Positions 4,783-45,510 of a stretch of DNA of 64,000 nucleotides are shown here, one piece after another. This DNA comes from Vibrio taketomensis (lineage in GTDB: Bacteria > Pseudomonadota > Gammaproteobacteria > Enterobacterales > Vibrionaceae). Below the pieces are notes generated by a model that searched no databases, was not told the origin of the DNA, and worked only from the letters and a program-made list of their open reading frames with translations. A program made the position numbers and the translations under genes. Numbering within the stretch: position 1 is the first letter of the stretch; the number at the start of each line of letters is the position of its first letter. Location: NCBI RefSeq assembly GCF_009938165.1, contig NZ_AP019650.1, positions 868,001 to 932,000 of the forward strand, written 5' to 3'.

Positions 4783-6780
4783 ATGCAGACCATAATACGT
4801 CGCTTTCCACTCTATATCATCGTGTCTCTTGTTGTAGGTATACCACTGATTATCAGCATTATTTTAGCCATACAGGATATTGTTGAGTTAAACCACAAGT
4901 CACGAACTGCATTACAAGATGAACAACTCGTCAAACTGGTTATCCATTATGACGACCTTGCACATAATCTGGCCGTAGAAAGAGGACTGACCGCTGGTGT
5001 TCTCGGTAGTAGAGGCGACCCGCAAATCGTCAAAAACTTGCAAAACCAACGCAATAAAGTCGATAACGCTGTTAACGATTTACAAAATTTCTCTTCAGAG
5101 CTTTTGGATAGCCAACTAACCCAACGTCTAGCGAAAGATGTGTTTTCTCAGTTAACGCAACTCAATCGTGTAAGATCTGGCGTAGACAAATTAGCCCCCG
5201 AAATTCCGCCATTTAACTATTACTCTAACCTTAACCAATTAATCATCGACAATGTCGGTATCCTAATCAGTAGAAGTGAGAATTCAGATCTGAGTACTTT
5301 AGGCCAATCGCTGACGGCCGTTATTGTGATGAAAGAGCGTGCAGGACAAGTTCGAGGCGCGCTCAACGGAGTGTTTGCTCGCGGCAGCACAACCCCTGAA
5401 ACATTTGCCAGCATCAAAGGCTATATCCAGTCTGGAGACGAAGCAAAGCGTGCGGCTGAAATCATTATGCCCCAAAACTTTATTCAACAACTGACTCAAT
5501 TGCAGCAGCAGAGTGCGTGGCAAAGCGTGGAATCGATACAAGCTCAATTTCTATCACAGAGTGATGACTTAACGAGCATCGAAGGCCCTAAAGCCACGGA
5601 GTGGTTCCCAATGGCAACAGCGCGCATTGGCTTACTTAACCAATTAAGAAATGCGATTCAAGCTGACATGCTTTCTTATTCTACTGCAGTTTCAACACAA
5701 GCCCTACTCAATCGCAATATTCTATTTGTCTCTACGATAGTTAGTGCATTAATCATTATTGTATTGCTATTTTCAATCGTCTATAACTTGCGCCATCGAG
5801 TCGGTCATATTAAAGATGATCTCAACACCATATCTGAAAACAAAGACTTAAGATTAACAGTTAACAGCGAAGGCCGAGACGAAATCGCGTCTATCGCTCA
5901 CAATCTAAACAAGCTGATTGGCAACTTAAAACAGTTACTTCTCGAAGTAACAAAGACCAATGACCATAACACTGAGCGTCTCGTTCGTATCGTCAGTTCT
6001 TCCGAAGAACTTGAAAAAAGCAGCCTAGCAACGATAGCCAAATGTGACAATATCGCCACAGCAATGACTCAACTCGCGCAATCAAGCATTGGCATTGCAG
6101 AATCCGCAGAGCGCGCTATGCAAGATACGTCAGCGATGAATCTTCGAGTAGAAGATTGTCAAACCCAAAGCAAACGCTCGTTTGATTCAGTACAGAGCCT
6201 GACAACACAAATAGCCGCTACGGAACAATGCCTGACAGAGTTAGCGGCTGACACCCAGAGCATCAGCCAGATTGTTGAGACAATAAATGGCGTCTCTGAA
6301 CAGACCAATCTACTAGCATTAAACGCTGCAATTGAAGCTGCTCGAGCTGGCGAACATGGTCGTGGCTTTGCAGTGGTCTCATCGGAAGTACGTGACCTTG
6401 CACAACGTAGCCAACAAGCAACGGAAAATATTGAAAAGCTACTGGCTAAAATTAGTGAGAAAACACAATTTTCTGTCGACAGCATGACGAAAAGTAAAGC
6501 GGCCAGCGACGCGACATTTGAGGCAGTCAAACACGTAACAGACAGTGTCGCGATGCTTGAAACCAGCATCGAACAGGTCAATAGTCACATTAACTCTATC
6601 GCTCAATCCACCACCGAACAATCTAAAGCGTGTGAAGCAATCGACCAAGATGTAGATATTCTTAACGAAATTGCCCATCAAACCAGCAGCCAAGCGGACG
6701 CGTTAAATCATGTGGTCAACGGCTACCAAGCAGAAGCCGACGCGCTAAAAACGCAGTTAGACGAGTTCAAACTAAGTTAA
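4783..6780 (+). CDS. Methyl-accepting chemotaxis protein with NIT-type sensor domain
   Basis: 665-residue transmembrane chemoreceptor. Order: TM1 (about 10-30), a large helical periplasmic domain (45-300) with the nitrate/nitrite-sensing-like signature ([19 protein letters not shown]), TM2 (about 312-332), HAMP, then the MCP signalling hairpin with the conserved tip [20 protein letters not shown] and [18 protein letters not shown]. It would relay a periplasmic ligand signal to CheA/CheW. NIT domains bind nitrate or nitrite in some proteins, but the ligand here is inferred only from family resemblance. It stands alone, with no che genes adjacent. Confidence 0.9.
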
Positions 6781-6810
6781 CTGTAGCCATACAGAAAAAC
6801 CATGTAAAAC

Positions 6811-6843
6811 ATGACAGACCAACCCATTGAGTTGGCCTGTCAT
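6811..6843. terminator. Hairpin after the chemoreceptor gene
   Basis: ATGACAGACCAAC and GTTGGCCTGTCAT form a long stem with a short loop between the converging receptor and yjbR-like genes. There is no clear T tract on either side, so termination is likely but not certain. Confidence 0.5.
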
Positions 6844-6863
6844 ACTCAATTAACCTCAAGGTG
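6841..6863. repeat. Solo copy of the MITE terminal repeat
   Basis: CATACTCAATTAACCTCAAG followed by GTGC matches the outer ends of the element at 7284-7550 (TATACTCAAG... and ...CTTGAGTATA). Only one end is present, so it is a fragment of that element or a solo end. Confidence 0.5.
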
Positions 6864-6875
6864 CTTGGGTATAAT

Positions 6876-7247
6876 TCATTGAGCCTTTGGTGCGATTCCT
6901 AACTCTGCCTGCACACGCTTTGGCAAGCTTTGCGACACCATGCGATAAGATTCAGACAAGTAGTATTTTAGTTCTTCATCTAAATCACCCGCCGTATTAA
7001 CCTGCTGTATCCATTTCATACCACGACTCGCAAAGTAAGGTGCCGGAATATAGCCTTCATGTTCACGAAGAAAATCGAAATTCATATCAGATGTTTTAAA
7101 CGTGAAAGCTGGCTTTTTGTTTTTACCCCAGCCTCCTATCGCAAATACCTTACCGCCAATTTTCCACACGTGAGAATCGCCCCATTGCATCACGTACGTT
7201 GTTGAAGGAAGTGTTCGACAAAACTGATTAAACTCATCGTAAGTCAT
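6876..7247 (-). CDS. MmcQ/YjbR family protein
   Basis: About 123 residues. The CyaY-like YjbR fold is indicated by YVMQWGDSHVWKIGGKVFAI, the aromatic basic stretch KPAFTFKTS, and the C-terminal EELKYYLSESYRMVSQSLPKR. These small proteins are cytoplasmic and sometimes called DNA-binding; no reaction is established. The frame extends to 7292, but ATG 7247 (MTYDEFNQF) matches the usual N-terminus. The upstream 15 codons fall close to the MITE-like element. Confidence 0.8.
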   Translation of the reverse strand: MTYDEFNQFCRTLPSTTYVMQWGDSHVWKIGGKVFAIGGWGKNKKPAFTFKTSDMNFDFLREHEGYIPAPYFASRGMKWIQQVNTAGDLDEELKYYLSESYRMVSQSLPKRVQAELGIAPKAQ

Positions 7248-7283
7248 ACTTATTACTCTAACTGCCTTGCTTATATATTCATG

Positions 7284-7550
7284 TATACTCAAGTGATTTC
7301 AAGATGCAGAATTCAGAGCATTGTTACTGCTTTGAGTTTAAGGAAAACTACGAAGTGAAATAGCCATCTATTTTCGAGTAGTTTGACGCAAAAATCGAGG
7401 CAGTAACTTGCTCCCAAAGGGCGAGTTGACTTGGCTCGCATACATCGTTAACGATTTTTGATTTAGAACAACTAGATCTTCAAATCATTGCCTTGTCTGC
7501 AATCCAAGTCATTCTCGCTGAACCTCGCACCTTGAGGTTACTTGAGTATA
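7284..7550. mobile_element. MITE-like element with 24-bp terminal inverted repeats
   Basis: The left end (TATACTCAAG, then T-rich, then TCAAGATGC) and the right end read in reverse (TATACTCAAG, then TAACC, then TCAAGGTGC) are imperfect inverted repeats of about 24 bp enclosing 267 bp without a gene. The right half (about 7408-7550) is also similar, in opposite orientation, to 35297-35441, sharing CCCAAAGGGCGAGTT and TTTAGAAC...AGATCTT.AAATCATTGCC. A solo end lies at 6841. Together these show a dispersed, non-coding repeat family of this genome. No transposase is visible. Confidence 0.65.
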
Positions 7551-7570
7551 TTCTCAGATACTTGGTTATG

Positions 7571-8200
7571 CTAAGAAACCATAACCTTAACGCCAAAAAC
7601 GGTAAACAAACCACCGGTTATATAATCTATCGCGCCCGATAACCTTGCGTATACACGCTTCGCTGCATGATGTGAAAATGCAACTGAGAGGAACACATGC
7701 CAACAGAGCGTAATACAAGCCATGGTGATCATGATGGCTGCGATCATTTCTAAGTCCATCTGCTTTGGCATGGAAACGCTAAATAAACTCACCACAAAGA
7801 AACCTGTTTTAGGATTTAAGATACTGGTAATAAATGCGAGTATAAATACTTTTTTACGCGTTATGACGGGCAAGGGATGAGCGTCGCCCAATGCATTTAA
7901 CCGGTTATATTTGCGAGTTAAATAAATCTGTCGTATTCCTAAATACAGCAAGTAACAACCGCCTATTACCTTCATACCCGTTAGCAATTGAGGAAAATAG
8001 GTAAACAGTATAACGAGACCGGAACCGCCAAAGAATGCCCAAAAAAGAGTTGCCGTACTCACACCAAACGCTGAATACATGGCTAACTTGCGATCATAAT
8101 GCAAAGCGGTATTGATGGTTAAGAGAACGTTAGCGCCAGGTGTAACCGCCGCCAACATCCAGATCAGCGCAACATGCAGTAGAACAAATAAAACATCCAT
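7571..8200 (-). CDS. LysE/RhtB family amino-acid exporter
   Basis: 209-residue inner-membrane protein with about six hydrophobic segments. The N-terminal LysE signature is present (MLAAVTPGANVLLTINTAL), followed by KVIGGCYLLYLGIRQIY and the central AFITSILNPKTGFFVVSLF. The family exports amino acids or small metabolites; the substrate cannot be told. Start 8200 (MDVLFVLLH) is preferred over 8248 because it matches the usual N-terminus. It is the last core gene before the cassette array. Confidence 0.88.
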   Translation of the reverse strand: MDVLFVLLHVALIWMLAAVTPGANVLLTINTALHYDRKLAMYSAFGVSTATLFWAFFGGSGLVILFTYFPQLLTGMKVIGGCYLLYLGIRQIYLTRKYNRLNALGDAHPLPVITRKKVFILAFITSILNPKTGFFVVSLFSVSMPKQMDLEMIAAIMITMACITLCWHVFLSVAFSHHAAKRVYARLSGAIDYITGGLFTVFGVKVMVS

Positions 8201-8304
8201 ATTTATGTACTTACAGAACCCGAATATTGGGTAAACACACGATAGCAAACCAATGCAAACGAAACAATTGGTTCACCGCCGCCTCAATCACAGATATATA
8301 CCAA

Positions 8305-8338
8305 TAGCGGATGTTTGAAAACCGGGGAATCCGTGTAA
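8305..8338. mobile_element. 34-bp relic of an IS1111-type right end
   Basis: TAGCGGATGTTTGA.AACCGGGGAATCC.TGTA is almost identical to the right end of the insertion sequence at 12127-12160 and, as there, abuts attC sequence directly. Nothing else of the element remains. To its left (8201-8304) I see no gene or IS similarity. Confidence 0.7.
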
Positions 8339-8409
8339 CCGCATAAAGTGGTGAACAACGTGACCGCCCAACCCTAAACCTTGCCATTTGCACTGAAGCG
8401 TTTTTAGGC
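8338..8409 (-). repeat. attC site 6, truncated by IS relic
   Basis: Ends in the R'' half (CCTAAAAACGC on minus) and retains the GTGGTGAACAACG arm of VCR-like attC sites. Its simple-site half (GGGCGTTA) is missing, replaced by the IS end at 8305-8338. The stop codon of the GIY-YIG-like gene lies in its R'' end, as is usual for cassettes. It marks the distal limit of the recognisable array. Confidence 0.65.
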
Positions 8410-8881
8410 TAATTTCCCACCGAAAACTTGGTATGTTGGAAAGTGTTCATTGTCATCATACAGATAACGCAATGCCGAAACTTCAGGTAACAAATTTCTA
8501 CGATTTCCCCAATTGTAAACATGACTATCAATAGGGACATCACCACCAACATTGTTAATATTTGAGGAATTCAATGCTGGTGAATGTGTATAAATTAGCA
8601 GCTTTTCAGCAATTGAGATTTGCCTACTCCATTCATCATTTGAAATTTGTTCATTCCCGGCAAATCGACCAACATAAACTTTCAAACATTCCCGAATGCC
8701 AAATGCTTTGTTTGTAAGACGCCTTACCGATATAAAGCAAGATATTGGAACCATATACAACGTGCGTTCCGTAAACCTGATATAACCCATAATCGCTTTG
8801 TTGGTGCATTTGCTTAATCTCTTCGAGCGAAAATGGACCATCCCATTGAACATGTATTTGTTGAGTAATCATCTTTTTCAC
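8404..8881 (-). pseudogene. GIY-YIG-like nuclease cassette gene, one frame break
   Basis: The first frame (from 8881) encodes YGLYQVYGTH then LLYIGKASYKQ, the two halves of a GIY-YIG-type catalytic core. It then runs out at 8651. The homologous continuation AFGIRECLKVYVGRFAGNE is in the next frame and runs to the stop at 8404. Removing one A near 8713 gives a single protein of about 158 residues. GIY-YIG proteins are single-domain endonucleases; the biological target is unknown. It forms the most distal cassette, with attC6 on its left and attC5 on its right. A single indel in a short A run could be an error or a real mutation. Confidence 0.65.
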
Positions 8882-8924
8882 ATCTTAATTTCACAAAATA
8901 TTCGTAATATGCAACCGAGTAGCC

Positions 8925-9047
8925 TAACGCCCAACAAAGGTGTGAGGCACGCAATACCGTAGCTACCGCATACCACCTTAAACACTCAACGCAACGCATA
9001 GCAAAAGTGCCAAGCGTTGCGAATCAATCTTAAACGCTTTGTTATGC
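8925..9047 (-). repeat. attC site 5 (VCR-like)
   Basis: Runs from TAACGCCCAACAAAGG to ACGCTTTGTTATGCC with the interior CGTTGCG boxes and the ACCACCTTAAACACTCAACGC arm shared with the other sites. About 123 bp. It ends the cassette carrying the 82-aa protein. Confidence 0.85.
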
Positions 9048-9078
9048 CGAATCTCGCGACTGTACGATTACTCTGCCG

Positions 9079-9327
9079 CTATTCAACTACTTCGGCTTCA
9101 GTGGACTCTGAAGCTGATTCTTCATTGCCTTTCTCAGCATGAAGCTCTACGCCCATAAAGCTACCCAACTCTCTTTTAATTCGATGCAATTCATTTACTG
9201 GTACGAATATCTCGCCGTATGCGTCCGAGCCTTCCTGAGCAATCTGATAAAACGCAAGCTCAGGGTGAGCATTTGTAGTTAGCCTCATTGATTTTTCATC
9301 TACGAGAAACTCTACTACCGTATCCAT
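9079..9327 (-). CDS. Small acidic cassette protein B, 82 aa
   Basis: Intact gene (MDTVVEFLVDEKSMRLTT) with a central block GEIFVPVNELHRIKREL..FMGVEL and a Glu/Ser-rich tail. It has no signal peptide and no membrane segment. The block is clearly related to the neighbouring cassette protein A (VIEVSVNEYHRIQREL..YFGVEI), so two adjacent cassettes carry members of one family. I do not know the family. No obvious partner gene shares the cassette, which speaks against a toxin-antitoxin pair. It is one of few unbroken genes in the array. Confidence 0.7.
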   Translation of the reverse strand: MDTVVEFLVDEKSMRLTTNAHPELAFYQIAQEGSDAYGEIFVPVNELHRIKRELGSFMGVELHAEKGNEESASESTEAEVVE

Positions 9328-9396
9328 ATTGACGTATAAGTTTTCTATTATTTTAATGCTTTAATCAAAATTTACTCCATATTTTCCGTATCGGAA

Positions 9397-9518
9397 TAAC
9401 GCCCGCTTAAGTGGTGAGCAACGCAATACCAAAGCCGCCGCACACCACCTTAAACACGAAAACCAACGCATAGTAAAAATGCCACGCGTTGCGAATCACT
9501 CTTGAACCGATTGTTATG
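9397..9518 (-). repeat. attC site 4 (VCR-like)
   Basis: From TAACGCCCGCTTAAGTGG to CCGATTGTTATGC, about 122 bp, with the GCCACGCGTTGCG box. The stop codon of the 100-aa gene lies within the R'' end (TTATGC). Confidence 0.88.
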
Positions 9519-9816
9519 CTGTAGGTTCGGGTTGATCTTGCTCCTGAGTTTCATTGCTAGAAACATCCTGGATCTCAACCCCAAAATACTCAGTTAACTC
9601 TCTCTGAATACGATGATATTCGTTAACTGAAACTTCTATCACGCAGCCGTTGAACTCACGTGCATAGTAATAAGAGTTGTCTTTATCGTCTTTAGAAATA
9701 ACCAAATGGTCATTATTCGTAAGAGCCAAATGGAACTCATTTTCAAATGTAGTTACCTGAACAATATTGTGTTTAGAAATAGTAAATTGTTCGTTTAATT
9801 TCAAACCAACTTTCAT
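9514..9816 (-). CDS. Small acidic cassette protein A, 100 aa
   Basis: Intact gene starting MKVGLKLNEQFTISKHN after AAGGATAA. The N-terminal half looks like beta strands (VTTFENEFHLALTNNDHLVIS). It is followed by VIEVSVNEYHRIQREL and YFGVEIQ, then a tail rich in Glu, Gln, Asp and Pro. It shares its central motif with the 82-aa protein of the next cassette. Soluble and cytoplasmic by appearance; function unknown. Confidence 0.7.
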   Translation of the reverse strand: MKVGLKLNEQFTISKHNIVQVTTFENEFHLALTNNDHLVISKDDKDNSYYYAREFNGCVIEVSVNEYHRIQRELTEYFGVEIQDVSSNETQEQDQPEPTA

Positions 9817-9853
9817 TATTTATCCTTATTATTGAATACTTTAATTTGCAGCA

Positions 9854-9974
9854 TAACGCCCGCTTAAGTGGTGAGCAACGCAATGCGATGTTGCCGCACA
9901 CCACCGTAATCACAACAATGAACGCACGACAAGAATGCCACGCGTTGCGAATCCGCCTTAAAGCGTTTGTTAGG
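9854..9974 (-). repeat. attC site 3 (VCR-like)
   Basis: From TAACGCCCGCTTAAGTGG to AAGCGTTTGTTAGG, about 121 bp, with GCCACGCGTTGCG near the R'' side. It ends the DUF4393 cassette. Confidence 0.88.
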
Positions 9975-10056
9975 TTTATTATCCACACTGAACCGCATTA
10001 TTCACGGGCTTAACATCCGCCAAAACACTCATGAAAAGATTTATCGAAGATATCAT

Positions 10057-10789
10057 TTAAACGACATTTTCCTTTCCCAAAACCCCAAAGGAATAATTCA
10101 GTTCCTGCAATAGTAGGCTCACACTAAAACCAATTATATCGTCTTGTAGCTTTAACTGCCTATTGTTGAAGTATTGCTTCACATGAGCTGGGTGGCCAAA
10201 ACCCCAGGAATCTGTAATAAGGCCATCTGCACTCAAACCTTGAAAAATATGGCTTAGAAGCTGAGGGTTATCCCATTCTTGTTGAGTGAACTCCATTGCT
10301 TCAGCATATTCTTGAAGTGGCATCCAGATCTGGCACTTTCGACGACCAGCACTGGTATCAAGTGCTTCATCAGCAATATCACAAGCCTTAGCCATAGCTG
10401 AGTAGACAATGTAATGAGTTCTCAGTTGATACGATGACAGGTTATCCAACTGGCGAGCAATTCTAGCACCACGATCATCTCGTCCGATATCAGTTCTTGA
10501 TGAAGCGAGTACGCCACCAAAATATTCAATCGCCAAATTTTCGGATGAGTAGGCCCTCATTAATTATTGTTTTGAGGACCTTGGGGAACTGAACCATTTT
10601 CAGAAATTTCAGACCCTAACTTATCTTCTGCACTTTTGAAAATCCTGCCTACATTTTCAATTCGTTTCTCAGTGAAACTTTAAGTTCACCACCAAGATAA
10701 TCAGCCGTAGGACCTAATAGCAGAAAGCCCATCTTTACCTAGGTAGGCGGCGATTGCACCAATACCTATAGTTGTAACTGGTTCTGCAT
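10057..10789 (-). pseudogene. Abi-alpha (DUF4393) cassette gene with several frame breaks
   Basis: Pieces in three frames read as one protein: EPVTTIGIGAIAAYLGKDG, then GPTADYLGGELKV, then TEKRIENVGRIFKSAEDKLG, then VLKTIINEG, then the intact C-terminal frame YSSENLAIEYFGGVLASSRT ... SSYQLRTHYIVYS ... EYAEAMEFTQQEWDNPQ. This order matches the DUF4393/Abi-alpha family, some members of which are linked to abortive infection of phage-infected cells. Start ATG 10789 lies behind AAGGAG, but the frame is lost at codon 2. At least four single-base disruptions are needed to restore it. It was presumably an anti-phage cassette, now probably inactive unless the breaks are sequencing errors. Confidence 0.7.
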
Positions 10790-10812
10790 AATTTCTCCTT
10801 AAAAACCTAACG

Positions 10813-12160
10813 AATGACATGGATTCCCCCGAGGAACTGCCACAATTAAGTGGTACACATTTGCACTGGAGGCACCATGTCTGACTATTCTTATTTTGCG
10901 GGATTGATTTAGCTAAAAACCACTTCAGCATTCATGCTGTTGACCAGCATGGCAAAGTTTTACTTCATAAATCAGTCACTCGCTCTAAACTGCTGACTAC
11001 AATAGCAAATATGCCACCTATGCGAATAGGTGTCGAAGCGTGGTGGTGCACATTATTGGGCGAGAACACTACGAAAACTCGGTCACGATGCTCGTATCAT
11101 GGCGGTGAAATATGTCACACCATATCGAACCAAAGGAAAAATGACCTCAATGATGCAGTCGCTATATGCGAAGCCGTGCAAAGGCCCACTACTCGCTTTG
11201 TTCCTATCAAATCCCCGAGCAACAAGCTATCTTATCGGTTCATCGAATGAGAGCATTGGGTGCGAACGGACCGCATTGATGAATCGTATTCGTGCACTAC
11301 TTTCTGAATTCGGCCTCATCATCCCCGTTGGTCGCGCTTCGTTGATGAGGCTAGTACCTGACATGCTTGAAAACCCTGAGAACGAGCTTCCTAACTTAGC
11401 ACGTGCAACGTTAGCTGATGCATTCGAGCACCTTAAGTCTCTCAACCAGAATATCGATAACACAGAAATCACTTTCGACGCGTTCGCTAAAGTCAGCACA
11501 AACGTCCAAAGAATAATGAAAGTACGCGGCATCGGTCCTCAAACCGCAACAGCTCTCCTCGCCTCCATCGGCAATGGCGCTCAATTTGATAAAAGCCTAG
11601 ATTTCTCTGCTTGGTTAGGGTTTGGTTCCTAAACAGTACTCAACTGGCGGAAAACCGAAATTAGGACGCATCACAAAACATGGCGATAAATATCTGCGGA
11701 CACTGCTTGTCCATGGTGCTCGAACAGTCATCGCTAACTTAGGTGATAAACAAGACCGGTTTAACCAGTGGTGCCGACGCGTTTTAGAGCGAAGAGGATG
11801 AATCGTGCGGTGGTCGCGTTGGCAGCGAAAACGCACGAATAATTTGGTCACTGATACACAACCAGACGGAGTATGAGAATTGCGCTGCTTAAGCTTTCGT
11901 TAACTCAAGCAGCGTAAGCGTTTTACCTACCGGGTCATAGCAGACGCAATGGATGGAGATAGGTTAAGACCACGAGCGGAGAGCCTGTTAATGCGGCGGA
12001 CATATTGAATGTCATCTAACGAATAAGGCACCGCAGTCGCGCAAAGTCATCAGGGTCACGATGCATGCGAATCATCGGTAGTAGACCGAATGTAGAGCGG
12101 CAGTCCAAAACCCATCACTTGAAGTTTAGCGGATGTTTGACAACCGGGGAATCCATGTAG
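10813..12160 (+). mobile_element. IS110-family (IS1111-attC-like) insertion sequence in attC2
   Basis: About 1.35 kb. Perfect 13-bp sub-terminal inverted repeats lie at 10817-10829 (ACATGGATTCCCC) and 12146-12158 (its reverse). The left flank is TAACG and the right flank CCCTGTTAAGGGTGAGCAACGC; joined, they rebuild a normal attC simple site (compare TAACGCCCGCTTAAGTGGTGAGC at 9397). The element therefore inserted within attC, the known target of the IS1111-attC group. The transposase inside is broken (10877-11892). Confidence 0.8.
10877..11892 (+). pseudogene. IS110/IS1111-type transposase, multiply frameshifted
   Basis: ATG 10877 follows GGAGG. Across frames the protein reads MSDYSYFAGIDLAKNHF, RIGVEA.GGAHYWAR, YRTKGK NDLNDAVAICEAVQRP, then MRALG and RIRALLSEFGL, then RGIGPQTATALLASIG, GGKPKLGRITKHGDKYLRT and RVLERRG. 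This is the DEDD-type N-terminus (Asp of GIDLAK, Glu of GVEA, Asp-Asp of NDLNDA) plus the C-terminal transposase-20 domain of IS110 elements. At least five one-base shifts occur (near 10905, 11040, 11140, 11630 and 11840), so this copy should be inactive. Confidence 0.85.
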
Positions 12161-12161
12161 C

Positions 12162-12273
12162 CCTGTTAAGGGTGAGCAACGCAACACAAAGCTACCGCAT
12201 ACCACCTTAAACACTAAACGCAACGCATAGTAAAATGCCACGCGTTGCGAATCCCTCTTAAATGCTTTGTTAG
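12162..12273 (-). repeat. attC site 2, split by the insertion sequence
   Basis: The larger part of a VCR-like attC, ending at CTTTGTTAG, with ACCACCTTAAACACTAAACGC and GCCACGCGTTGCG. Its first five bases (TAACG) are at 10808-10812 on the other side of the insertion sequence. It ends the OLD-type nuclease cassette. Confidence 0.82.
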
Positions 12274-12274
12274 T

Positions 12275-13921
12275 TTAATTTTCTTTTTGTTGCTCAAGGG
12301 CTTCATCAATTAGACCAAAAGTTTATTAAACGTACTGGCCCAACGGTAATTGTTTTCACCCTCAGCGCGTTTCTTCAAGTGTTCCCGTAATTTAGCCTTA
12401 TTTTCATTACTACTATAACCAAATGGTAATAGTGAACCATTCATGTCTGTACAGAAGTTCTTAAACCATTTTGGATTTTCTTTATGGGCATCAGTAATCC
12501 ATTTTGAGGGAATAAACACTCTACGGCAAGCCCTTGAGGCAACATGGTAAATTGTTTGTTTGGTTCAAATGGTATTTTCTTACTATTAAAGAAGTTTTGT
12601 AGTGCTTTGCGAGTTTTATCTCCAGCTTCATCACCATCAAGAACCACTACAATCGGTCTTTCACTGTAGACATGCTGGTAGGTAGCTTTCATAAAGCCCT
12701 CAATTGCTCCCGTACCACCAAAATCTAAAAACTCTGCAGCTCTAACATTTTCCCACTGAAAGCTCTTGCCTGCTTGAGGTTTCACCGTATCTAAAACCCA
12801 TTTAAACAGCTCTCGATCTGTTTTACCTTCAACGAAAATGTTAAGTAACCCTAGATTAAAGAAATCACTTAATTTGACACCTAAGGAATTACGGATGGTT
12901 GACGTTGCATCTGTATAGGTAGCAAACGTTTTGCACTTTGTATAACCATCTATAATCTCTGTACCGATTATTTTTCGTGGCTCTTGTGGTACGAATGTAA
13001 GGCTATGTGTCGTCGTCACTAAATGGGCTACTTCATTTAAAGACTTCAAAATATGTGTACATGAATTAGCCAGCTCAGGGTGCAAATATGATTCAGGTTC
13101 TTCAATTAACCATATAGACGTCTTATTTAGTGTTTTTCCTGTCCGGTAATCCATGCAAATGAAGATAGAATTGCCGCTGATTGAATACCCATACCTTTAC
13201 GCTGAATTTCTGTTTCAACAGGGTCGGCAAGATGGTATTCAAAAGAGCTAAGTAAATGCTCAATGGAATTATTCGGTAATTTAAAACTTGATGTAATGCC
13301 TTCAAGGTTCGCACTTTGAGCTGTGCGTCAATAAAGTCGACACTTCACCCAAGCTTTCTTCGATTTCAGAAATTTTTCCTGCAACCTACTCGACACGTGC
13401 TTCTTAACAAATGGAAGTAGCAATTCGTTATATAGACTATCTGTACTTTTGCTGACGGAACGTAGTGGCATTCGAAAGAGTGCAAAATTAAAGAACAAGG
13501 TCTCTTTGGATTCGATTGTAATCGTTTTGTGACTTTCTTTTGGCGACTACCATGAAAAGGCGATAGGAAGGTTGCCTGATTTCGAAAATGTTAAATAAAC
13601 GGTAATTGTATCGTTGAGCTCTCGAGGCTCAGCTATACATGAGTTCAATTCATGGTATAGATTTTAATTGAAGTATCTTCGGGCTCTAATTTAAAGACCC
13701 TATAAGCGATGTCTGATTACTCTCAAGCTTTTCGGTAGGTCCCTACTTAAACAATAATGATATTTATTGTCAAAACCAGTAAAGAACATCTGAACTGCTT
13801 TGAGAATATTAGTTTTACCACTACTGTTTGGGCCAACAATCGTAACGCCGCCATCAAAACTTACAGTTACTTCCTCTTCTAAGGTTCGGAAGTTTTTCAC
13901 CTTGATACTATCTAACTTCAT
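12275..13921 (-). pseudogene. OLD-type ATPase/TOPRIM nuclease cassette gene, frameshifted
   Basis: The N-terminal frame (MKLDSIKVKNFRTLEEEVT) has Walker A GPNSSGKTN. A downstream frame (12441-13154) has the ABC-type Walker B region IWLIEEPESYLHPELANS followed by a TOPRIM domain (IFVEGKTDRELF, then VVVLDGDEAGD). The C-terminus continues in two more frames (WITDAHKENPKWFKNF, then GLIDEALEQQKEN to TAA at 12275). The intact protein would be about 549 residues. OLD-family nucleases are DNA-cleaving ATPases with anti-phage roles in several systems. Frame breaks lie near 12310, 12520, 13150 and through 13320-13700. It fills cassette 2. No gajB/UvrD-like helicase is next to it. Confidence 0.75.
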
Positions 13922-13985
13922 AACTACAAAACAGAATACTATAAAGCTATATTGTCGCAATGTTCAGATGCATATGCAATTAAAC

Positions 13986-14083
13986 TAACGCCCGCATAAT
14001 TGGCGGGATAAGGTTGGTTAAAATACGCGAGGCACGAGCGGAACCAACCTTTGACCGTCCGTGTTGATGCGTTTGTTATATGG
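13986..14083 (-). repeat. attC site 1 (non-VCR type)
   Basis: From TAACGCCCGCATAATTGGCG to GATGCGTTTGTTATATGG. The outer simple sites match the others, but the inner arms are different (AAGGTTGGTTAAAATACGC pairing with GCGGAACCAACCTT), so this cassette came from a different attC lineage. The end GTTATATGG is complementary to the cassette start at 14839. Confidence 0.75.
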
Positions 14084-14815
14084 CTAAACACCATCCCGTT
14101 GCTTTATGTGCTCTTGGGTGTCTTCGGGTATTAAATCGGAGTACAAGCTTTCTAACTCTTTGGTTTGGTTATCAACTCTTCGGCTATGAAGTTCAATATG
14201 CTAAAAGTTTATAAGCGACCTCTGCGTTGTCATCGATGTTGATTTGACCAGGATGAACAGCATTGTTTCCAACGACCCTCAATGAATCTAGAGCTTGTTG
14301 AATTTTGGGGCTTAAACCTTCTGACACCAGCTCTTTAATATCGTTATTGATATTTTGCCACTCTTCCCTACTTGCTTAAGAAGCTTCTGAAGTGCAAGCC
14401 TAAGTAGAGCTGTTGAGCCTTTAGGCGAATCAACAATAATTGATGCAGCTTCTAAGTAAAGATCCTTGATGTCGTGAGCCAAGTCCTCATTTGGGGATGG
14501 TAGTGATGTTGTTTTGGATATTTCATTTGTTGTTCAACCCATAGGCTAAACCCATCACAAGCAGAGCATGAAGCAATAGCAAAGCCACTCGGAACAAAGG
14601 ATGAGAAGCTACTTTTGAAATCATGTTCAATATGATCCAAAAGACTTGAACTGCATTCTGCTGGTAGTCTTTGACATGCTTGCGGTAATCCAAATATATA
14701 TGATGCAATATATTAATTGCGATTTCGCTTGCGCTACCAACTCAAACCAATTTTGAACTGCAACTATTTGGCAGTGAGGACATTTGAATTTTTCGCTTCC
14801 GTACTCAGGTATCAT
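14084..14815 (-). pseudogene. DUF4145 protein cassette gene, frameshifted
   Basis: ATG 14815 lies behind GGAG. Pieces across frames read MIPEYGSEKFKCPHCQIVAV QNWF, then SKVAS..., SACDGFSLWVEQQMKYP, LYLEAASIIVDSPKGSTALL, RLALQKLLK, IQQALDSLRVVGNNAVHPGQ, NFIAEELITKPK and KELESLYSDLIPEDTQEHIK, ending at TAG 14084. This is the DUF4145 arrangement: a zinc-ribbon-like CPHC/SACD pair, then a helical domain with the VVGNNAVHPG motif. DUF4145 domains recur in or beside restriction and other defence genes; their activity is unclear. At least four frame breaks. It is the first cassette after attI, normally the best-expressed position. Confidence 0.72.
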
Positions 14816-14838
14816 TTTAACTCCTATGCTTCATGGCC

Positions 14839-14900
14839 ATATAACAGTGTATTAGGCTGAACTCTCACTAAGATCCCGCAGCCATAGCGCTATTTTTCAT
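14839..14900 (-). other. attI recombination site (approximate)
   Basis: The first cassette begins at the core GTTATAT (14839-14845 on minus), which matches the R'' end of attC1. The sequence to its right is the non-mobile side and must contain attI. The right limit is arbitrary because I cannot place the integrase-binding direct repeats. The array promoter Pc should lie between here and intI; I could not identify it with confidence. Confidence 0.55.
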
Positions 14901-15140
14901 TACTTTACTAAGAACATGCTATTCTAATCAACAAGTTGCACCATTTAACACTGCCACCCATCTCACATTGTCTAGAAGTAAAACGAGAATTCGAATTTGG
15001 CAAGACTTCATAAGCATCCTAACAAGTGCTCTAACTCACGTTTTATCATCATCTTACGAACAAAGGTTCGGGGGAAAAAGAGAACGCTAGTCTCGTTAAT
15101 GTCGTTTACATTTGGCAATTTTTGCAGGTCTCAGTTATAA

Positions 15141-15156
15141 CTGTATATAAAAACAG
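15141..15156 (+). promoter_or_regulatory. LexA (SOS) box upstream of intI
   Basis: CTGTATATAAAAACAG is a perfect match to the LexA consensus CTGT-N8-ACAG. It lies 20 bp before the preferred intI start. SOS control of integron integrases is established in Vibrio and mobile integrons, so damage-induced cassette shuffling is expected here. Confidence 0.88.
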
Positions 15157-15176
15157 CATCATCAATGAGAGTAAAA

Positions 15177-16139
15177 ATGCCAAAGTCAGCTTTTATGGAA
15201 CAAGTTCGTACCGAGATTCGCACGAGACAGTACAGCATGCGAACCGAAAAAACGTATATGTATTGGATTCGCTATTTCATTCGGTTCAATGATTTGAAGC
15301 ATCCTGAGGTGATGGGGAATCGCGAAATTGAGCGTTTTCTAAACCACCTCGCTGTGAATTGCCACGTCAGTGCTGCAACACAAAACTTGGCTTTGTGCGC
15401 AATTATATTTATGTATCGGCATATTATTAAGCGCGATATTCAAGATCTTCAATATAAAAACACCAACACACCAAAGCGAATACCAACGGTTCTCTCCGAT
15501 CAAGAAATCAAATTAGTGTTAAAGCAAATGGAGGGTAAATACTGGCTCATCGCAACGATTTTGTATGGCTGTGGCCTACGTATTCAAGAAGCGTTATCAC
15601 TAAGAATTAAAGATATCGATTTTGAATCTAGGTCAATATTAGTTTTCAAGGGCAAAGGAAACAAAGACCGCTACACCTTATTACCAACGACATTGATTGA
15701 GCCTATAAATAAACAAATTGAAACGGTAAGGCGCGTACATTCACAAGACTTATCTGACGGTGGCGGAATGACTTCCGTGCCACCAGCTCTTTACAAAAAG
15801 TATCGCACTGCTCTTAAGCATTACGGTTGGCAATACTTGTTTCCGTCTAATGTTCGGAGCGTTAACCCTTATGATGGCTATGTATGCCGACATCACTTAC
15901 ACGCTTCTGCTTTCGCCAAACAGCTCCGCAAGGCTGTTCATGCTTCTGGCATTGCAAAAAGAGTAACAGCCCATACTTTTAGGCATTCATTCGCGACCAG
16001 ATTGTTAGAAAACGGTACGGATATACGCACTGTTCAAGAATTACTCGGCCACTCTGATTTAAAAACGACACAAATCTACACGCATGTTGTTGGCCAACGT
16101 CGAGCCGGCACACGCAGCCCTTTAGATTGTATCGTCTAA
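15177..16139 (+). CDS. intI: Integron integrase (tyrosine recombinase)
   Basis: 320-residue tyrosine recombinase that joins cassettes at attI x attC and excises them at attC x attC. The catalytic set is complete: Arg in YGCGLRIQEALSLR, Lys near FKGKGNKDR, His-x-x-Arg in HTFRHSFATRL, His in LLGHSDLKTTQ and nucleophile Tyr in IYTHV. The IntI-specific insertion follows YLFPSNVRS (RHHLHASAFAKQLRKA). An ATG also exists at 15165, but 15177 has TGAGAG at proper distance and gives the usual 320 aa. The gene diverges from the cassettes and is intact although surrounded by broken genes. From memory it is noticeably different from V. cholerae IntIA in its N-terminal half. Confidence 0.95.
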   Translation: MPKSAFMEQVRTEIRTRQYSMRTEKTYMYWIRYFIRFNDLKHPEVMGNREIERFLNHLAVNCHVSAATQNLALCAIIFMYRHIIKRDIQDLQYKNTNTPKRIPTVLSDQEIKLVLKQMEGKYWLIATILYGCGLRIQEALSLRIKDIDFESRSILVFKGKGNKDRYTLLPTTLIEPINKQIETVRRVHSQDLSDGGGMTSVPPALYKKYRTALKHYGWQYLFPSNVRSVNPYDGYVCRHHLHASAFAKQLRKAVHASGIAKRVTAHTFRHSFATRLLENGTDIRTVQELLGHSDLKTTQIYTHVVGQRRAGTRSPLDCIV

Positions 16140-16156
16140 GCTTTTATTCAGACATA

Positions 16157-16180
16157 AAGGGATACCACGTGGTATCCCTT
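16157..16180. terminator. Palindromic terminator between intI and dsdA
   Basis: A perfect 24-bp palindrome (AAGGGATACCAC and its reverse complement) lies between the converging intI and dsdA genes, 17 bp after the intI stop. It could terminate both; T tracts are weak. Confidence 0.7.
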
Positions 16181-16191
16181 AGTTTATAGAT

Positions 16192-17522
16192 TTAGCGACC
16201 TGATTTCGCTAAGTAAGCGGCCATTTCTGCTTCTGGCACCATACCACCACCCGTTGCCCATACTAGGTGAGTCGCGCTAGCAAGCTTCTCTTCAGTCAAA
16301 TCTAAACGCGTTTGATACTCAACGTTGTTCGAAACATGTACCGCCCCAACATACCTGCCAGCGCCGATGGTTCAAGACGAATACCTTCCACTTCGCTAAG
16401 CTCACCCAAGTGGTGGTACATACGCTCATCGGTCATGGTGTAATAACCATCTAACAAACGCTCCATCGCTCGACCAACAAAGCCTGACGCGCGACCCACC
16501 GCTAAACCATCCGCCGCGGTGATGTTATCAATACCCAAATCTTGTACTGCAATCTCATCATGCAGACCAGTATGAACACCGAGTAGCATGCATGGTGAAT
16601 GTGTTGGTTCTGCAAAGATACAGTGTACATGGTCACCAAATGCCATTTTCAAACCAAATGCCACGCCGCCAGGACCACCACCAACGCCACATGGCAAGTA
16701 AACAAACAGTGGGTGCTCAGCATCGACTTGGATACCTTGCTCTGTAAACTGCTGCTTCAAACGCTCACCCGCGACTGAATAGCCTAAGAAAAGAGTCTGC
16801 GAGTTTTCGTCATCAATAAAGAAGCAGTTTGGATCTTTCTCCGCCTCTTTACGACCCTGCTCCACTGCCACGCCGTAGTCTTGCTCGTATTCCACCACGT
16901 TTACGCCATGCGAACGTAGCTTATTCTTCTTCCACTCACGCGCATCGGCTGACATATGCACTGATACTGAGAAACCAAGCTTAGCGCTCATGATACCAAT
17001 CGACATACCAAGGTTACCGGTTGAGCCAACGGCAATGCTGTATTGTTTGAAGAAGTCACGAAACTCTTCGCTAAACAGTTTGCTGTAATCCTCTTCTTTG
17101 CTCAGCAATCCAGCTTCCATTGCCAATTTTTCTGCGTGTGTCAGTACTTCATAAATACCTCCACGTGCTTTGATTGAACCAGAAATAGGCAGGTGGCTGT
17201 CTTTTTTTAGCATCAAACGACCCGCGATCTTAGTGTTGTATTGCGCTTCCAGCTGCACCTTCATCTTCTTAATATCAACCACTTGAGATTCAATAATCCC
17301 TTGCGATGGTACTGTTTCTGGGAATGCTTTTACCAAATAAGGAGCAAAGCGTTGTAGCCTCTTACTGGCGTCTTGGATGTTATCAGCGCCTAAGCCAACA
17401 TAAGGTAGACCTTCTTCTAGTGACGTGATATTTGGGTTAAACCACACCACCTCTTCTAAACCAATCAGCTGCTTTACTAATGGAAACTCTTCAACAAGTG
17501 CGGTTACGTTATGTGTAGTCAT
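16192..17522 (-). pseudogene. dsdA: D-serine dehydratase, one frameshift near the C-terminus
   Basis: PLP enzyme converting D-serine to pyruvate and ammonia. The intact part shows the PLP lysine (SGSIKARGG), [13 protein letters not shown] and the phosphate-binding [13 protein letters not shown]. At GGGG near 16346-16349 the frame changes: ALAGMLG is followed by RYMF instead of the family [13 protein letters not shown]. The missing end is present in the next frame ([29 protein letters not shown]) to TAA at 16192. Adding one G gives 443 residues, the usual length. The remnant of dsdX follows upstream and no dsdC is present, so the pathway is probably lost even if this indel is an error. Confidence 0.88.
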
Positions 17523-17538
17523 TATTCTCGACCTTTGT

Positions 17539-17786
17539 TTAAATCATGTACGACAGAAGGAATGTGCCGGCAGGGCAACAAATGACGCGATAAAAGTCGC
17601 CGTCGTGTAGTACTTAAAGATTTCAGACATCGTGGCGCCGCAGTATTGCTTAACCAACCAAAACAGCGAATCGGTTACAATGGTACAACCAATTGCGCCT
17701 GAACCTATTGCCAGCGTAATGATTTCTGGACTTACATTTGGATATAGCGGCAGTAGTGGAGCAACAATTACCGTTGCGCCCATCAA
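17539..17786 (-). pseudogene. dsdX: D-serine permease, C-terminal fragment
   Basis: About 80 residues of a GntP-family transporter matching the extreme C-terminus of DsdX: PLYPNVSPEIITLAIGSGAI, GCTIVTDSLFWLVKQYCGAT, then FKYYTTATFIAS. The first ~360 residues are absent; upstream of 17786 the sequence is unrelated. A further one-base loss near 17568 displaces the last residues (GTFLLSYMI in the next frame, ending TAA at 17539). It is a deletion remnant upstream of dsdA in the former dsdXA operon. Confidence 0.88.
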
Positions 17787-17927
17787 AAGCCCTCACAGAA
17801 ACTGCAGCTGTTTATCAATTGATTATTTGAACAAGTTAAGCAAGACTGAGTTTGACGAGTTTGAGTAATAACATTCACTATCCTTCTGGTATCGTTACTC
17901 TATGAACCGGCATTACAGGTATATCAT

Positions 17928-18587
17928 ATGGGATCTGATTTATCGCCAATACTCTATTCTCTTCACAACTGCCCTTATGCAATTCGAGCAAGGCTTGCTT
18001 TGTTAAAAGCGAAGCAGCGCGTCGCAATACGTTCAATCAAGCTTAGTAACAAACCCTCTGAGCTGTTGGCTGCTTCACCAAAAGGCACTGTACCTGTACT
18101 AATCATTCAGCAAAACTCATCGGTGATCGACCAAAGCATTAAAATTATGATTTGGGCTCTCATTCAGAGCGATCCAGATAATTTATTGCAAGCCGAAGAT
18201 GGCAATGCATTACCCGCAATGATCTCATTCATACAGGAATTTGAACGCATCTTTATCCCTGCACTCAATGCATTTGGATGTGCCAAAAGATACCACGAAG
18301 ATGATACGCATAAACGACGTAACACATGCCAAATCGAACTTCTCAAACTTGAAGAATGCTTAACTCAGCATGCATTTCTATTCTCGAACACAGAGAGCCT
18401 CGTCGATATCGCCCTACTGCCATTTATACGTAAGTATGCGCGTATCGATAAGCAATACTTTCGTTATGCACCCTACCCTAAGTTGCGCGCTTGGCTAAAT
18501 CGTTATCTACAGAGTCCGCTATTTTCAAAGGTGATGAAAAACTATGATTTGTGGCAAGAGAATCAACGCGAGCAATTTCTTGGCTAG
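17928..18587 (+). CDS. Glutathione S-transferase family protein
   Basis: 219 residues. Thioredoxin-fold N-terminal domain (about 7-80) with PILYSLHNCPYAIRARLAL (Cys-Pro-Tyr-Ala) and the cis-Pro/glutathione-binding stretch SPKGTVPVLI followed by VIDQSIKIM. An all-helical C-terminal domain follows. Likely cytosolic, using glutathione to conjugate or reduce an unknown substrate. The gene is intact between broken dsdX and a decayed duplication. Confidence 0.85.
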   Translation: MGSDLSPILYSLHNCPYAIRARLALLKAKQRVAIRSIKLSNKPSELLAASPKGTVPVLIIQQNSSVIDQSIKIMIWALIQSDPDNLLQAEDGNALPAMISFIQEFERIFIPALNAFGCAKRYHEDDTHKRRNTCQIELLKLEECLTQHAFLFSNTESLVDIALLPFIRKYARIDKQYFRYAPYPKLRAWLNRYLQSPLFSKVMKNYDLWQENQREQFLG

Positions 18588-36143: not shown

Positions 36144-36701
36144 TTAAAAAGATGCAGATATTTCATCTGTCACCATTTGTAAACCTTCGCTCATTGCTTT
36201 TACTAACGCAGCATACCCTTCATTATCTAAAGGAACAGCATAATTGAACGTTTGAACTTGGTGAATTTTTCCCTCTGGAGAGATCAACATCCATTCTCCG
36301 CTCACTTGAGCATCACCAGTATAGCTACCATTAAATCGCTCAATATTTACCACCAAACTATCGCTGTCTTGCGTCTTCAACGCATTATTTAGCTGCACGG
36401 GCCAATATTGAGTTTGTTTAGCTTTCAATTGGGCAACGATTTGATTTTGCAATTGACGACGCAAATCCATCGCCCATTGATTTTGTTTTGCTTCGATAAC
36501 TTCTGAATCAGAAACGCGGTAAACAATGCCATCCACATCTAAGTATTGCGCCAATTCAACGTCAATAACCAAAAGCGGTGCTTTAGACGAAGCGACGATC
36601 GCTTGTTCCGAATCCGGTAACAGGTATTGCTGATTGTTTGATGTTGGTTGCGATGAGCATGCGACCAAAGCCAAACAACACACCATTAAAATGTATCTCA
36701 T
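36144..36701 (-). CDS. pqiC: PqiC lipoprotein
   Basis: 185 residues with a lipoprotein signal (MRYILMVCCLALVAC, Cys at 15). PqiC-type domain (VIDVELAQYLDVDGIVYR, NQWAMDLRRQLQNQI, LVVNIERFNGSYTGDAQVSG). It caps the MCE tunnel of PqiB at the outer membrane for phospholipid traffic. Its ATG overlaps the pqiB stop codon. Confidence 0.9.
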   Translation of the reverse strand: MRYILMVCCLALVACSSQPTSNNQQYLLPDSEQAIVASSKAPLLVIDVELAQYLDVDGIVYRVSDSEVIEAKQNQWAMDLRRQLQNQIVAQLKAKQTQYWPVQLNNALKTQDSDSLVVNIERFNGSYTGDAQVSGEWMLISPEGKIHQVQTFNYAVPLDNEGYAALVKAMSEGLQMVTDEISASF

Positions 36702-38352
36702 TTACTCGTTCCTTTTACTGGTTGCGGATCATCACTTACCTCATCACCAAAGATCAGCGCGTTTGGTTTATCCTCAATTTGCTTCAACACAGGCTGTAGC
36801 GCTTTCATGGTTTTCTCAAGCTCTAGCAACGACTGATCAAGGTTTTGATACACACTAGATTGCGAGCTGAAGCTATCAAGTGTTGTTTGAAGCTGCTGTA
36901 AACTTTGTTTGAGTTCCGTTGGTAAAGATTGCGTATCGTCTTGCTCAACCATAGTGCGAATACTGTTCATGGTTTGCTCTGCCGAACTCAACGTTTTTTC
37001 TAGTTGCGCTAGAGAACCATTCAATGAAGAAACACTGTCATTCAACGGCAGATTCGCCACATTATTCAGGATTTCCATCATCTTGGTTTGAACTTCCGCT
37101 ATTTCGCTTTGCATTGAAGGGAAAACCGGATTGCCATCTATCGTCTCGGCCACGTATTTTTCTTTCTCTTCGGTGTAATCAAGCTCGACGTATAGTGCAC
37201 CTGTTAGCAGGCTACCAGTATTAAGCTTCGCACGCAGACCGTTTTCAAATTCGCGTTGAATTAATGCCATCAACTGTTTATTGGTATACGTTTCACCTTG
37301 ATCGAAGGTGAAGATTCGACGCGGTTCTAGTTTGATTTGCACTCCGAGTTTAGGAATGTCAAAACCATCCTCTAGCTTAGCTCGGCGCCAAGGTACACGG
37401 GTGACACTACCAATTTTCAAACCACGAAATTCAACTGGAGCCCTACTTTTAACCCTCGTAACGAATCTTTGAATAACACGACATATTTTACGGACTGGCG
37501 ATAAATCCCCTCTTCCGCGTCTACTTTCGAATTGTGCAGTGCGAATTCACGGTAATCTTTCGTCACTAATTGACCCGGATTATCATTTTCCACCTCACCA
37601 AAACTGACACCGCCGCTGAGCATAGATTCAATTGAATCAATTCTTACTTTGAACCCTTCGGCGTTAAGCTGAAGGTCAACGCCTGAACTTAGCCAAAACT
37701 GGCTCGACGTTCGCACCAAGCTATCAAACGGTTTGAAGATGAACAGTTGATACTGAGCAATACGGTTGGCCGTATCGATCGTCACTTTTTCAACACGACC
37801 CGCAGTAAAGCCCTGATAGATTACCGGATCGCCAACAGAAAGCTGACCCGCGAGGTCGTGATTCAATACGACACGCAAACCCTCAGCATTAGGTGGAGCG
37901 ACTGGCGGAGTATCTAACACATCAAAACGAGTTCGACTCTCCGTCGCTTTACCTGGTTGAAGCTGAATATAAGCGCCTGAAAGCAAAGTCTCTAAGCCCG
38001 ATACGCCTTCTTTACCCACGCGAGGCTCAACGATCCAAAACAAGCTATCTTTGCGTAACATGCGTGCGGCATCTTTAGTCATCTGCGCTTTGACGATGAT
38101 GTGGTCGTAGTCTTTACTCAAAGTCACGTCTGTGACCACGCCCACCTTCACGTTGAGCGATTTAATTTGCGTTTTTCCGACCTCGATACCAGATGCATCC
38201 GACATGATCAGTGTCACCTCAGGACCGGTGCTATTGACATATTGATACAGCATCCAAATGCCAATTCCGAGCGCAACTAGCGGGATCAACCAAATCGCGG
38301 ACAGATTCGAGTGCTGACTAATATTCGCTTGAATATCGTTTTGTTCACTCAT
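36698..38352 (-). pseudogene. pqiB: PqiB MCE-domain protein with one frameshift
   Basis: Intermembrane lipid-transport protein: TM near residues 20-40 (LSAIWLIPLVALGIGIWMLY), then three MCE domains. The frame ends after LRGLKVG at GGG (37441-37443). Inserting one G restores VGAPVEFRGLKIGSVTR and joins the second frame (from about 37436) through a C-terminal coiled coil to the stop at 36698, giving 551 residues, as expected (546 in E. coli). Overlaps pqiA by 8 bp and pqiC by 4 bp. The rest of the operon is intact and the break is in a G run, so a sequencing error is quite likely. Confidence 0.9.
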
Positions 38353-39821: not shown

Positions 39822-39895
39822 TGGAGGCGCCTCCCGGAGTCGAACCGAGGTCCACGGATTTGCAATCCGCTGCATAGCCACTCTGCCAAGGCGCC
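39822..39895 (-). tRNA. tRNA-Cys (GCA)
   Basis: 74-nt cloverleaf on minus, GGCGCCTTGGC...GGAGGCGCC with encoded TCCA end. Anticodon loop ATTGCAAAT. Identical sequence at 45336-45409 and 45722-45795. Confidence 0.96.
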
Positions 39896-39926
39896 TTTTT
39901 GTATTCTGAAAGGAATTTCAGTTAGA

Positions 39927-40013
39927 TGGTGCCCCGGGCCGGACTTGAACCGGCACGACGCGAACGTCGAGGGATTTTAAATCCCTTGTGTCTACCAATT
40001 TCACCACCAGGGC
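39927..40013 (-). tRNA. tRNA-Leu (TAA)
   Basis: 87-nt class II tRNA on minus with a long variable arm (CGACGTTCGCGTCG), anticodon loop TTTAAAA, T arm GCCGGTTCAAGTCCGGC and encoded ACCA. It precedes tRNA-Cys on minus by about 30 bp. Confidence 0.96.
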
Positions 40014-45335: not shown

Positions 45336-45409
45336 TGGAGGCGCCTCCCGGAGTCGAACCGAGGTCCACGGATTTGCAATCCGCTGCATAGCCACTCTGC
45401 CAAGGCGCC
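45336..45409 (-). tRNA. tRNA-Cys (GCA), second copy
   Basis: Identical to 39822-39895, including the encoded CCA. Followed on its right by the same spacer (CTGAAAGGAATT..AGTTAGATGGTG) that precedes tRNA-Leu in the first cluster. Confidence 0.96.
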
Positions 45410-45440
45410 TTTTTATATCCTGAAAGGAATTGGAGTTAGA

Positions 45441-45510
45441 TGGTGTCTCTGGCTGAACTTGATGCTCCGACATTTCGGCCGGCCAGCGAACAGAGGATTA
45501 TCAATCCACA
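45441..45510 (-). pseudogene. Degenerate tRNA-Leu-like relic
   Basis: On minus it keeps an anticodon-arm-like GGATTGATAATCC, a remnant long variable arm, a T-loop-like ATCAAGTTCAGCC and an acceptor end GAGACACCA with CCA. The 5' acceptor strand and D arm are missing. It occupies the place of tRNA-Leu in the repeated unit (same 5' spacer), so it is probably a decayed copy. It should not fold as a working tRNA. Confidence 0.6.

What the first reader, a model, noticed from the sequence alone, without database searches (positions are those of the whole stretch)
8338..14845. Short chromosomal integron whose large cassettes all resemble defence genes
Three of six cassettes carry families linked to phage defence or found near it: OLD-type ATPase/TOPRIM nuclease, Abi-alpha (DUF4393) and DUF4145. 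A fourth is GIY-YIG-like. The remaining two are unknown small acidic proteins. This looks like a compact, mobile defence array under an SOS-controlled integrase, and the two unknown proteins are candidate new defence or anti-defence components. Families were recognised by motif; the link to defence is inference.
Basis: partly seen in the sequence, partly recalled or inferred. Interest (0 to 1): 0.75.

Follow-up and report, generated by a model that had tools for sequence, protein, structure and literature searches.

The report
Small damaged integron with defence-type genes
A Vibrio carries a short gene-capture array with two recognisable anti-phage defence genes, but as sequenced those genes have broken reading frames and a jumping element has cut into the array; arrays that store defence genes are already known in vibrios.

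Summary
The integron is real: an open integrase (15165-16139 +), a LexA-type box in front of it, and six cassettes on the minus strand (8404-14815). Cassette 1 is better named PD-T7-4 than DUF4145 (PADLOC E 6.8e-23). Cassette 2 is an OLD-like ATPase/TOPRIM protein. Cassette 3 is only remotely like Abi-alpha/DUF4393. Cassette 6 is GIY-YIG-like by motif. Cassettes 4 and 5 are related to each other and have no family; nothing ties them to defence.

Cassettes 1, 2, 3 and 6 are frame-broken as sequenced. Two copies of the IS differ by 9 gaps and 3 mismatches, which suggests local consensus error or very recent indels rather than old decay; undecided without reads. Integrons as stores of defence genes in Vibrio are in print (2025). 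Two of six cassettes match defence models against 0 of 34 ORFs in five other arrays: suggestive only.

The parts
15165..16139 (+). integron integrase gene intI, open frame of 324 aa
   Evidence: TIGR02249 E 4.8e-122; one full-length match in own genome
15141..15156 (+). LexA-type box CTGT-N8-ACAG before intI
   Evidence: only match in the window, 0.85 expected by chance; same place in V. rhodolitus L006:3816
14843..15140 (.). attI and cassette promoter region (inferred from position)
   Evidence: lies between intI and cassette 1; the promoter scan of 14750-15250 found none
14084..14815 (-). cassette 1: PD-T7-4-type gene (DUF4145), frame-broken
   Evidence: PADLOC PDLC04109 on three pieces; Pfam DUF4145 E 6.3e-9; three frames
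13986..14078 (-). attC of cassette 1, 93 nt, closest to Pseudoalteromonas sites
   Evidence: R1 34.1 bits; 77-78% to two Pseudoalteromonas sites
12310..13963 (-). cassette 2: OLD-like ATPase/TOPRIM gene, frame-broken
   Evidence: two frames against a 34% relative
12158..12272 (-). attC of cassette 2, VCR type, split by the IS; its outer end lies at about 10815-10825
   Evidence: R1 89.3 bits; sequence
10826..12157 (+). IS110/IS1111-type element inside the attC of cassette 2, transposase frame-broken; ends approximate
   Evidence: DEDD_Tnp_IS110 E 5.2e-8 and Transposase_20 E 2e-6; further copies
9982..10787 (-). cassette 3: family of about 274 aa, remotely like DUF4393, frame-broken
9854..9972 (-). 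attC of cassette 3, VCR type
   Evidence: R1 116 bits, a training site
9514..9816 (-). cassette 4: open gene, 100 aa, no family
   Evidence: 22 homologues
9397..9516 (-). attC of cassette 4, VCR type
   Evidence: R1 125.2 bits, a training site
9079..9327 (-). cassette 5: open gene, 82 aa, relative of cassette 4
   Evidence: 34% identity over 74 columns, E 5e-9 for the pair
8925..9044 (-). attC of cassette 5, VCR type, weak pairing of the outer arms
   Evidence: R1 101.8 bits, a training site; arm score 10 against 12-16 in 25 other sites
8404..8884 (-). cassette 6: GIY-YIG-like gene, frame-broken
   Evidence: two frames
8305..8410 (-). far edge: 36-base IS end (8305-8340) next to what looks like a degenerate attC of cassette 6
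   Evidence: 92% to the end of the full IS; attC by eye

Best explanation
A small chromosomal integron remnant in a Vibrio. An Alteromonadales-type integrase, probably switched on by the SOS response, has gathered cassettes with both Vibrio-type and Pseudoalteromonas-like attC; two of them encode known kinds of anti-phage protein (PD-T7-4 in first place, OLD-like second). Shown: integrase, LexA-type box, attC sites, two defence-model matches, IS inside an attC, IS end at the far edge, frame breaks as sequenced. Inferred: DNA damage relieves LexA, IntI excises cassettes and puts them first, where they are best expressed; an attC-seeking IS1111-type element and a later deletion cut the far end and help explain the short array; the frame breaks are local consensus error or very recent indels.
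For: Integrase and single copy; LexA-type box, same place in V. rhodolitus, in 62 of 109 intI loci; attC model hits; PD-T7-4 and OLD matches; PD-T7-4 relatives beside attC in 7 of 8 strong loci of the genus; IS in attC here and at C2:497 kb; IS end at the edge; IS copies 9 gap openings against 3 mismatches, relatives 5 indels against 226 substitutions; integrase clade.
Against: Neither defence nor integrase activity is tested. The frame breaks are not general: 21 of 22 neighbouring genes compared are in one frame, and intI and cassettes 4 and 5 are open, which plain local error would leave so with P 0.08. A MAFFT alignment of the two IS copies, with untrimmed ends, gives 9 substitutions and 10 indels, less one-sided than BLAST. 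No sigma-70-like promoter was found at the array start. The tree is a quick one with a midpoint root.
Confidence: 0.7

Rival explanations
1. Old decay: the array lost function long ago and its large genes are pseudogenes under no selection.
For: Several frame breaks per gene; IS insertion and edge piece; one attC with weak arms; attC scattered over both chromosomes.
Against: Most conserved residues are kept where the frame is right; cassette 6 pieces are 97-98% identical to an unbroken homologue; gap excess between IS copies.
Confidence: 0.15
2. A working compact defence array: the breaks are sequence errors and the large cassettes, perhaps the small ones too, act against phages.
For: Two matches to defence models; 2 of 6 cassettes against 0 of 34 ORFs in five other arrays, Fisher 0.019; signs of consensus error.
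Against: No link of cassettes 3-6 to defence; no close relative of cassettes 4 and 5 in viral contigs and none of cassette 2; the element looks cut back.
Confidence: 0.25
3. An ordinary sample of Vibrio cassettes in which two defence genes are present by chance.
For: With published rates of defence cassettes (16 of 179; 9 of 57, section 16 of PMC12409362) two or more of six has P 0.09 to 0.24.
Against: 0 of 34 ORFs in five other arrays match PADLOC at the same threshold, though those are from other genera and rates by assay are not rates by model match.
Confidence: 0.35

Closest known systems
Sedentary chromosomal integrons of Vibrio as stores of anti-phage genes (Darracq 2025; Getz 2025; both known here through PMC12409362, of which section 16 was read)
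   Same: Integrase, VCR-type attC, single-gene cassettes, some of them defence genes
   Different: Six cassettes instead of well over 20; integrase of another lineage; attC also in three clusters elsewhere; main genes frame-broken as sequenced
PD-T7-4 (PMC9519451, one passage seen)
   Same: Model match over about residues 6-171 of 211 in pieces
   Different: Here an integron cassette and frame-broken; [quoted passage not shown]
OLD family nucleases (PADLOC Old, GajA, AriA)
   Same: AAA_15 start, Walker A, Walker B and TOPRIM-like motifs by eye, PADLOC matches
   Different: Single gene in a cassette, no partner gene; TOPRIM model under its cut-off
IS1111 elements that target attC (passages of PMC11187229; Tetu and Holmes 2008 is cited there and was not read)
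   Same: IS110/IS1111-type transposase; insertion at one end of an attC, twice in this genome
   Different: Transposase frame broken in both full copies as sequenced; subterminal repeats and seekRNA not examined

Membership tests
integron | integron integrase | tested here: met
   TIGR02249 407.2 bits against 265
integron | attC sites between cassettes | tested here: met
   five model hits in the array, three of them training sites
integron | attI site and cassette promoter | tested here: inconclusive
   junction seen by eye; promoter scan found none
integron | recombination activity | not testable with these tools
   needs an assay
PD-T7-4 | match to the PADLOC model | tested here: met
   E 6.8e-23, 9e-17, 9.8e-6 on three pieces
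PD-T7-4 | open gene that lowers phage plating | tested here: not met
   gene in at least three frames as sequenced; plating not testable
OLD | ABC-type ATPase domain | tested here: met
   AAA_15 E 1.3e-13; PADLOC Old E 7e-11
OLD | TOPRIM domain | tested here: inconclusive
   PF20469 E 0.012, under the cut-off; PADLOC Old match of the same piece runs into it, E 4.6e-10
Abi-alpha / DUF4393 | PF14337 over its cut-off | tested here: not met
   0 of 5 homologues, own genome 0; 7 of 108 at E<=1, best 1.9e-5; profile probability 81%
GIY-YIG | PF01541 or PF20815 over the cut-off | tested here: not met
   best E 0.015 and 0.068 in 2 and 3 of 15 members; motif visible
IS1111 elements that target attC | IS110/IS1111-type transposase inserted in attC | tested here: met
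IS1111 elements that target attC | subterminal inverted repeats and seekRNA region | not tested
   not examined

The most novel reading that the evidence does not exclude
In a small Vibrio branch (this host and V. rhodolitus) the usual Vibrio integrase has been replaced by an Alteromonadales-lineage one that nevertheless works on VCR-type cassettes, so that a defence library is traded between Vibrio and Pseudoalteromonas, and cassettes 4 and 5 are a new small defence family.
Probability: 0.1. Interest if true: 0.5.

Novelty: new member of a known kind. Interest (0 to 1): 0.3.

Why it matters
PD-T7-4, found by selection in E. coli, turns out to be a recurrent integron cassette in Vibrio (7 of 8 strong loci beside an attC), and the array gives an example of an integron cut by an attC-seeking IS. 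If the integrase replacement is real, one can ask how strictly an integrase is tied to its host's attC type.

Tried and rejected
DUF4393 as the name of cassette 3: not met at the cut-off, kept as a remote likeness. MutT likeness of cassette 4 (PADLOC PDC-S07 E 0.0021; NCBIfam E 0.011): judged chance, since one relative scores worse and one not at all. Viral relatives: none found for the cassette 2 piece or the cassette 4 family; 4 viral contigs carry relatives of cassette 3. DNA searches of plasmids and phages gave IS and what I take for attC pieces. Two home-made attC finders gave nothing or were unspecific and were replaced by the covariance model. A pattern with gaps of 40-70 missed the VCR sites; a wider one found some among chance matches, 76 against 92 for its reversed control. 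Weak attC arms as proof of array shrinkage: dropped, only one array site is clearly off, the split site cannot be judged, and one site had shifted coordinates in that script. No close DNA relative of cassette 3 in 222 other genomes of the genus, only short matches in 2. An early note said 24 genes and about 11 indels; the counts used are 22 and 9 gap openings. A hand-typed 9 frame changes was too high; at least 6 is used. Rfam found nothing at 6500-18000. No structure prediction finished, so no fold search was made.
Full report
What is there. The window lies on the smaller contig (1.34 Mb) of a two-contig genome of 4.3 Mb. The closest integrase is that of Vibrio rhodolitus, 75% identical; the same sequence turns up in a genome labelled same genus (G065), so the host is a Vibrio of unknown species. 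The same GTPase gene follows the integrase in both, 4.3 kb downstream here and about 0.2 kb downstream in V. rhodolitus. The array runs on the minus strand from 14815 to 8404, with the integrase divergent at 15165-16139.

Integrase and control. The integrase passes TIGR02249 (407.2 bits) and is the only full-length match in the genome. CTGT-N8-ACAG occurs once in the window, at 15141-15156, with 0.85 expected by chance, at the same place in V. rhodolitus, and within 200 bases upstream of the match in 62 of 109 intI loci. SOS control is likely, not shown. No sigma-70-like promoter was found at 14750-15250.

attC sites. A model of 20 Vibrio sites finds 14 sites in the genome at E<=0.1, 150 of 1795 candidates having been scored: five here, three at C2:495825-497459, four at C1:1290811-1295343 and two at C1:1057203-1057464. 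A direct search of the C2 cluster shows one more, L161:3777-3870. So 9 of 14, or 10 of 15, lie in clusters without an integrase. Three of the five array sites were training sites. The attC of cassette 1 is 93 nt long and closest to two Pseudoalteromonas sites (78% and 77%), but a site of another Vibrio genome reaches 74%; the other four are of the VCR type.

Cassettes. Cassette 1: three pieces match PD-T7-4, a fourth does not. In the genus 16 of 227 genomes match at E<=0.001, the own included; of the 8 others with E under 1e-40, 7 have an attC beside the gene and 5 have one on both sides, 1 has none; of the 7 weaker ones 1 has attC on both sides and 6 none. Several of those attC are training sites; the two beside the gene in L128 are not. 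Cassette 2: OLD-like; 1 of 295 other genomes of the family has a relative at E<=1e-10, 34% identical; the closest solved chains are GajA, E 0.02. Cassette 3: 124 database proteins including the window's own piece; remotely like DUF4393 but not over its cut-off. In the order 3 of 294 other genomes have a relative. A true DUF4393 gene does sit between two attC in one Vibrionaceae locus (L117). Cassettes 4 and 5: related; cassette 4 has 22 database relatives, of which 13 bear names, 12 Vibrio and 1 Salinimonas; 6 of 295 other genomes of the family have one, and 3 of the 6 loci show attC. Cassette 6: 17 database proteins including the window's own; two are named GIY-YIG there; best Pfam E 0.015.

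Damage. Against unbroken homologues cassettes 1, 2, 3 and 6 fall into at least 3, 2, 3 and 2 frames, at least 6 changes in about 4.26 kb. Of 37 V. rhodolitus ORFs, 22 match the window, all from intI rightwards; 21 align in one frame and 1 in two, over 28.3 kb. The left flank was not compared. At that rate 0.15 changes are expected in the array (P 1.4e-8). Cassettes 4, 5 and intI are open; at the array's rate this has P 0.08. Is the damage real? Two full IS copies differ by 9 gap openings and 3 mismatches in 1328 columns by BLAST; MAFFT with untrimmed ends gives 10 indels and 9 substitutions. Two relatives of the IS differ by 5 indels and 226 substitutions (Fisher 6e-11 on the BLAST counts). 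Of conserved columns covered by pieces, cassette 3 keeps 54 of 64 and cassette 6 keeps 47 of 65; the lost ones lie mostly in runs at piece ends, where I take the frame to be wrong. This fits consensus error or very recent indels better than old decay. The clean right flank speaks against a general error rate.

The IS. An IS110/IS1111-type element sits near the end of the attC of cassette 2; a second full copy, 99% identical, sits in a VCR-type attC at C2:497 kb, with two partial copies near it, and 36 bases of its end, 92% identical, lie at the far edge of the array. IS1111 elements that target attC are known (passages of PMC11187229). That an insertion and a later deletion cut the array short is inference.

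Origin of the integrase. In a quick likelihood tree of 103 rows it stands with V. rhodolitus (two identical rows) and 11 rows of Pseudoalteromonas, Psychrosphaera, Paraglaciecola, Thalassotalea and Shewanella (14 rows, SH-aLRT 99), apart from the other 27 Vibrio rows. The careful tree did not finish, and the Vibrio rows are the best matches out of 119 genomes with one.

More than chance? PADLOC at E<=1e-5 finds 2 of 6 cassettes here (tested as pieces) and 0 of 34 ORFs of five other arrays (38 were found, 4 dropped), Fisher 0.019. Those arrays are from other genera. One of the 34 has a weak DUF4145 and one a DUF4062 domain. With published rates of defence cassettes, 16 of 179 and 9 of 57 (section 16 of PMC12409362), two or more of six has P 0.09 to 0.24, three or more 0.01 to 0.05. 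Three ORFs of the V. rhodolitus array and four around the C1 cluster have no PADLOC match at E<=0.01.

What is in print. Section 16 of PMC12409362, read in full, describes chromosomal integrons of V. cholerae and V. parahaemolyticus as stores of anti-phage genes. PD-T7-4 comes from PMC9519451 (one passage). No paper of the library holds both 'PD-T7-4' and 'integron', or 'Vibrio rhodolitus' and 'integron'; most subscription papers are not in it. Other searches gave listings only.

Verdict. A genuine integron with two defence-type cassettes, damaged as sequenced, of a kind already described. The integrase lineage and the scattered attC are the less usual points.

Noticed in passing
39822-40013 and 45336-45795: Five tRNA genes (3 Cys, 2 Leu) in two clusters about 5.3 kb apart.
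   Followed up: no
36698-38352: The one neighbouring gene of 22 that falls into two frames against its V. rhodolitus counterpart.
   Followed up: partly
16302-17522: A pyridoxal-phosphate enzyme gene right beside the integrase (PALP E 1.7e-40); its end looks cut by a frame change, judged by eye.
   Followed up: no
L006:2107-3093 -: A cassette-position gene next to the V. rhodolitus integrase has DUF4062 (E 9e-32) and a weaker TIR match, but no PADLOC match.
   Followed up: partly
L115, G070:C1:503876-505423: In another Vibrio a split PD-T7-4 gene stands right before a DUF4393/Abi-alpha gene, with no attC found in the fetched stretches.
   Followed up: partly
L183:5798-6373 -: Another IS110-type transposase piece (E 3.8e-13) near the attC cluster on the larger contig.
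   Followed up: no
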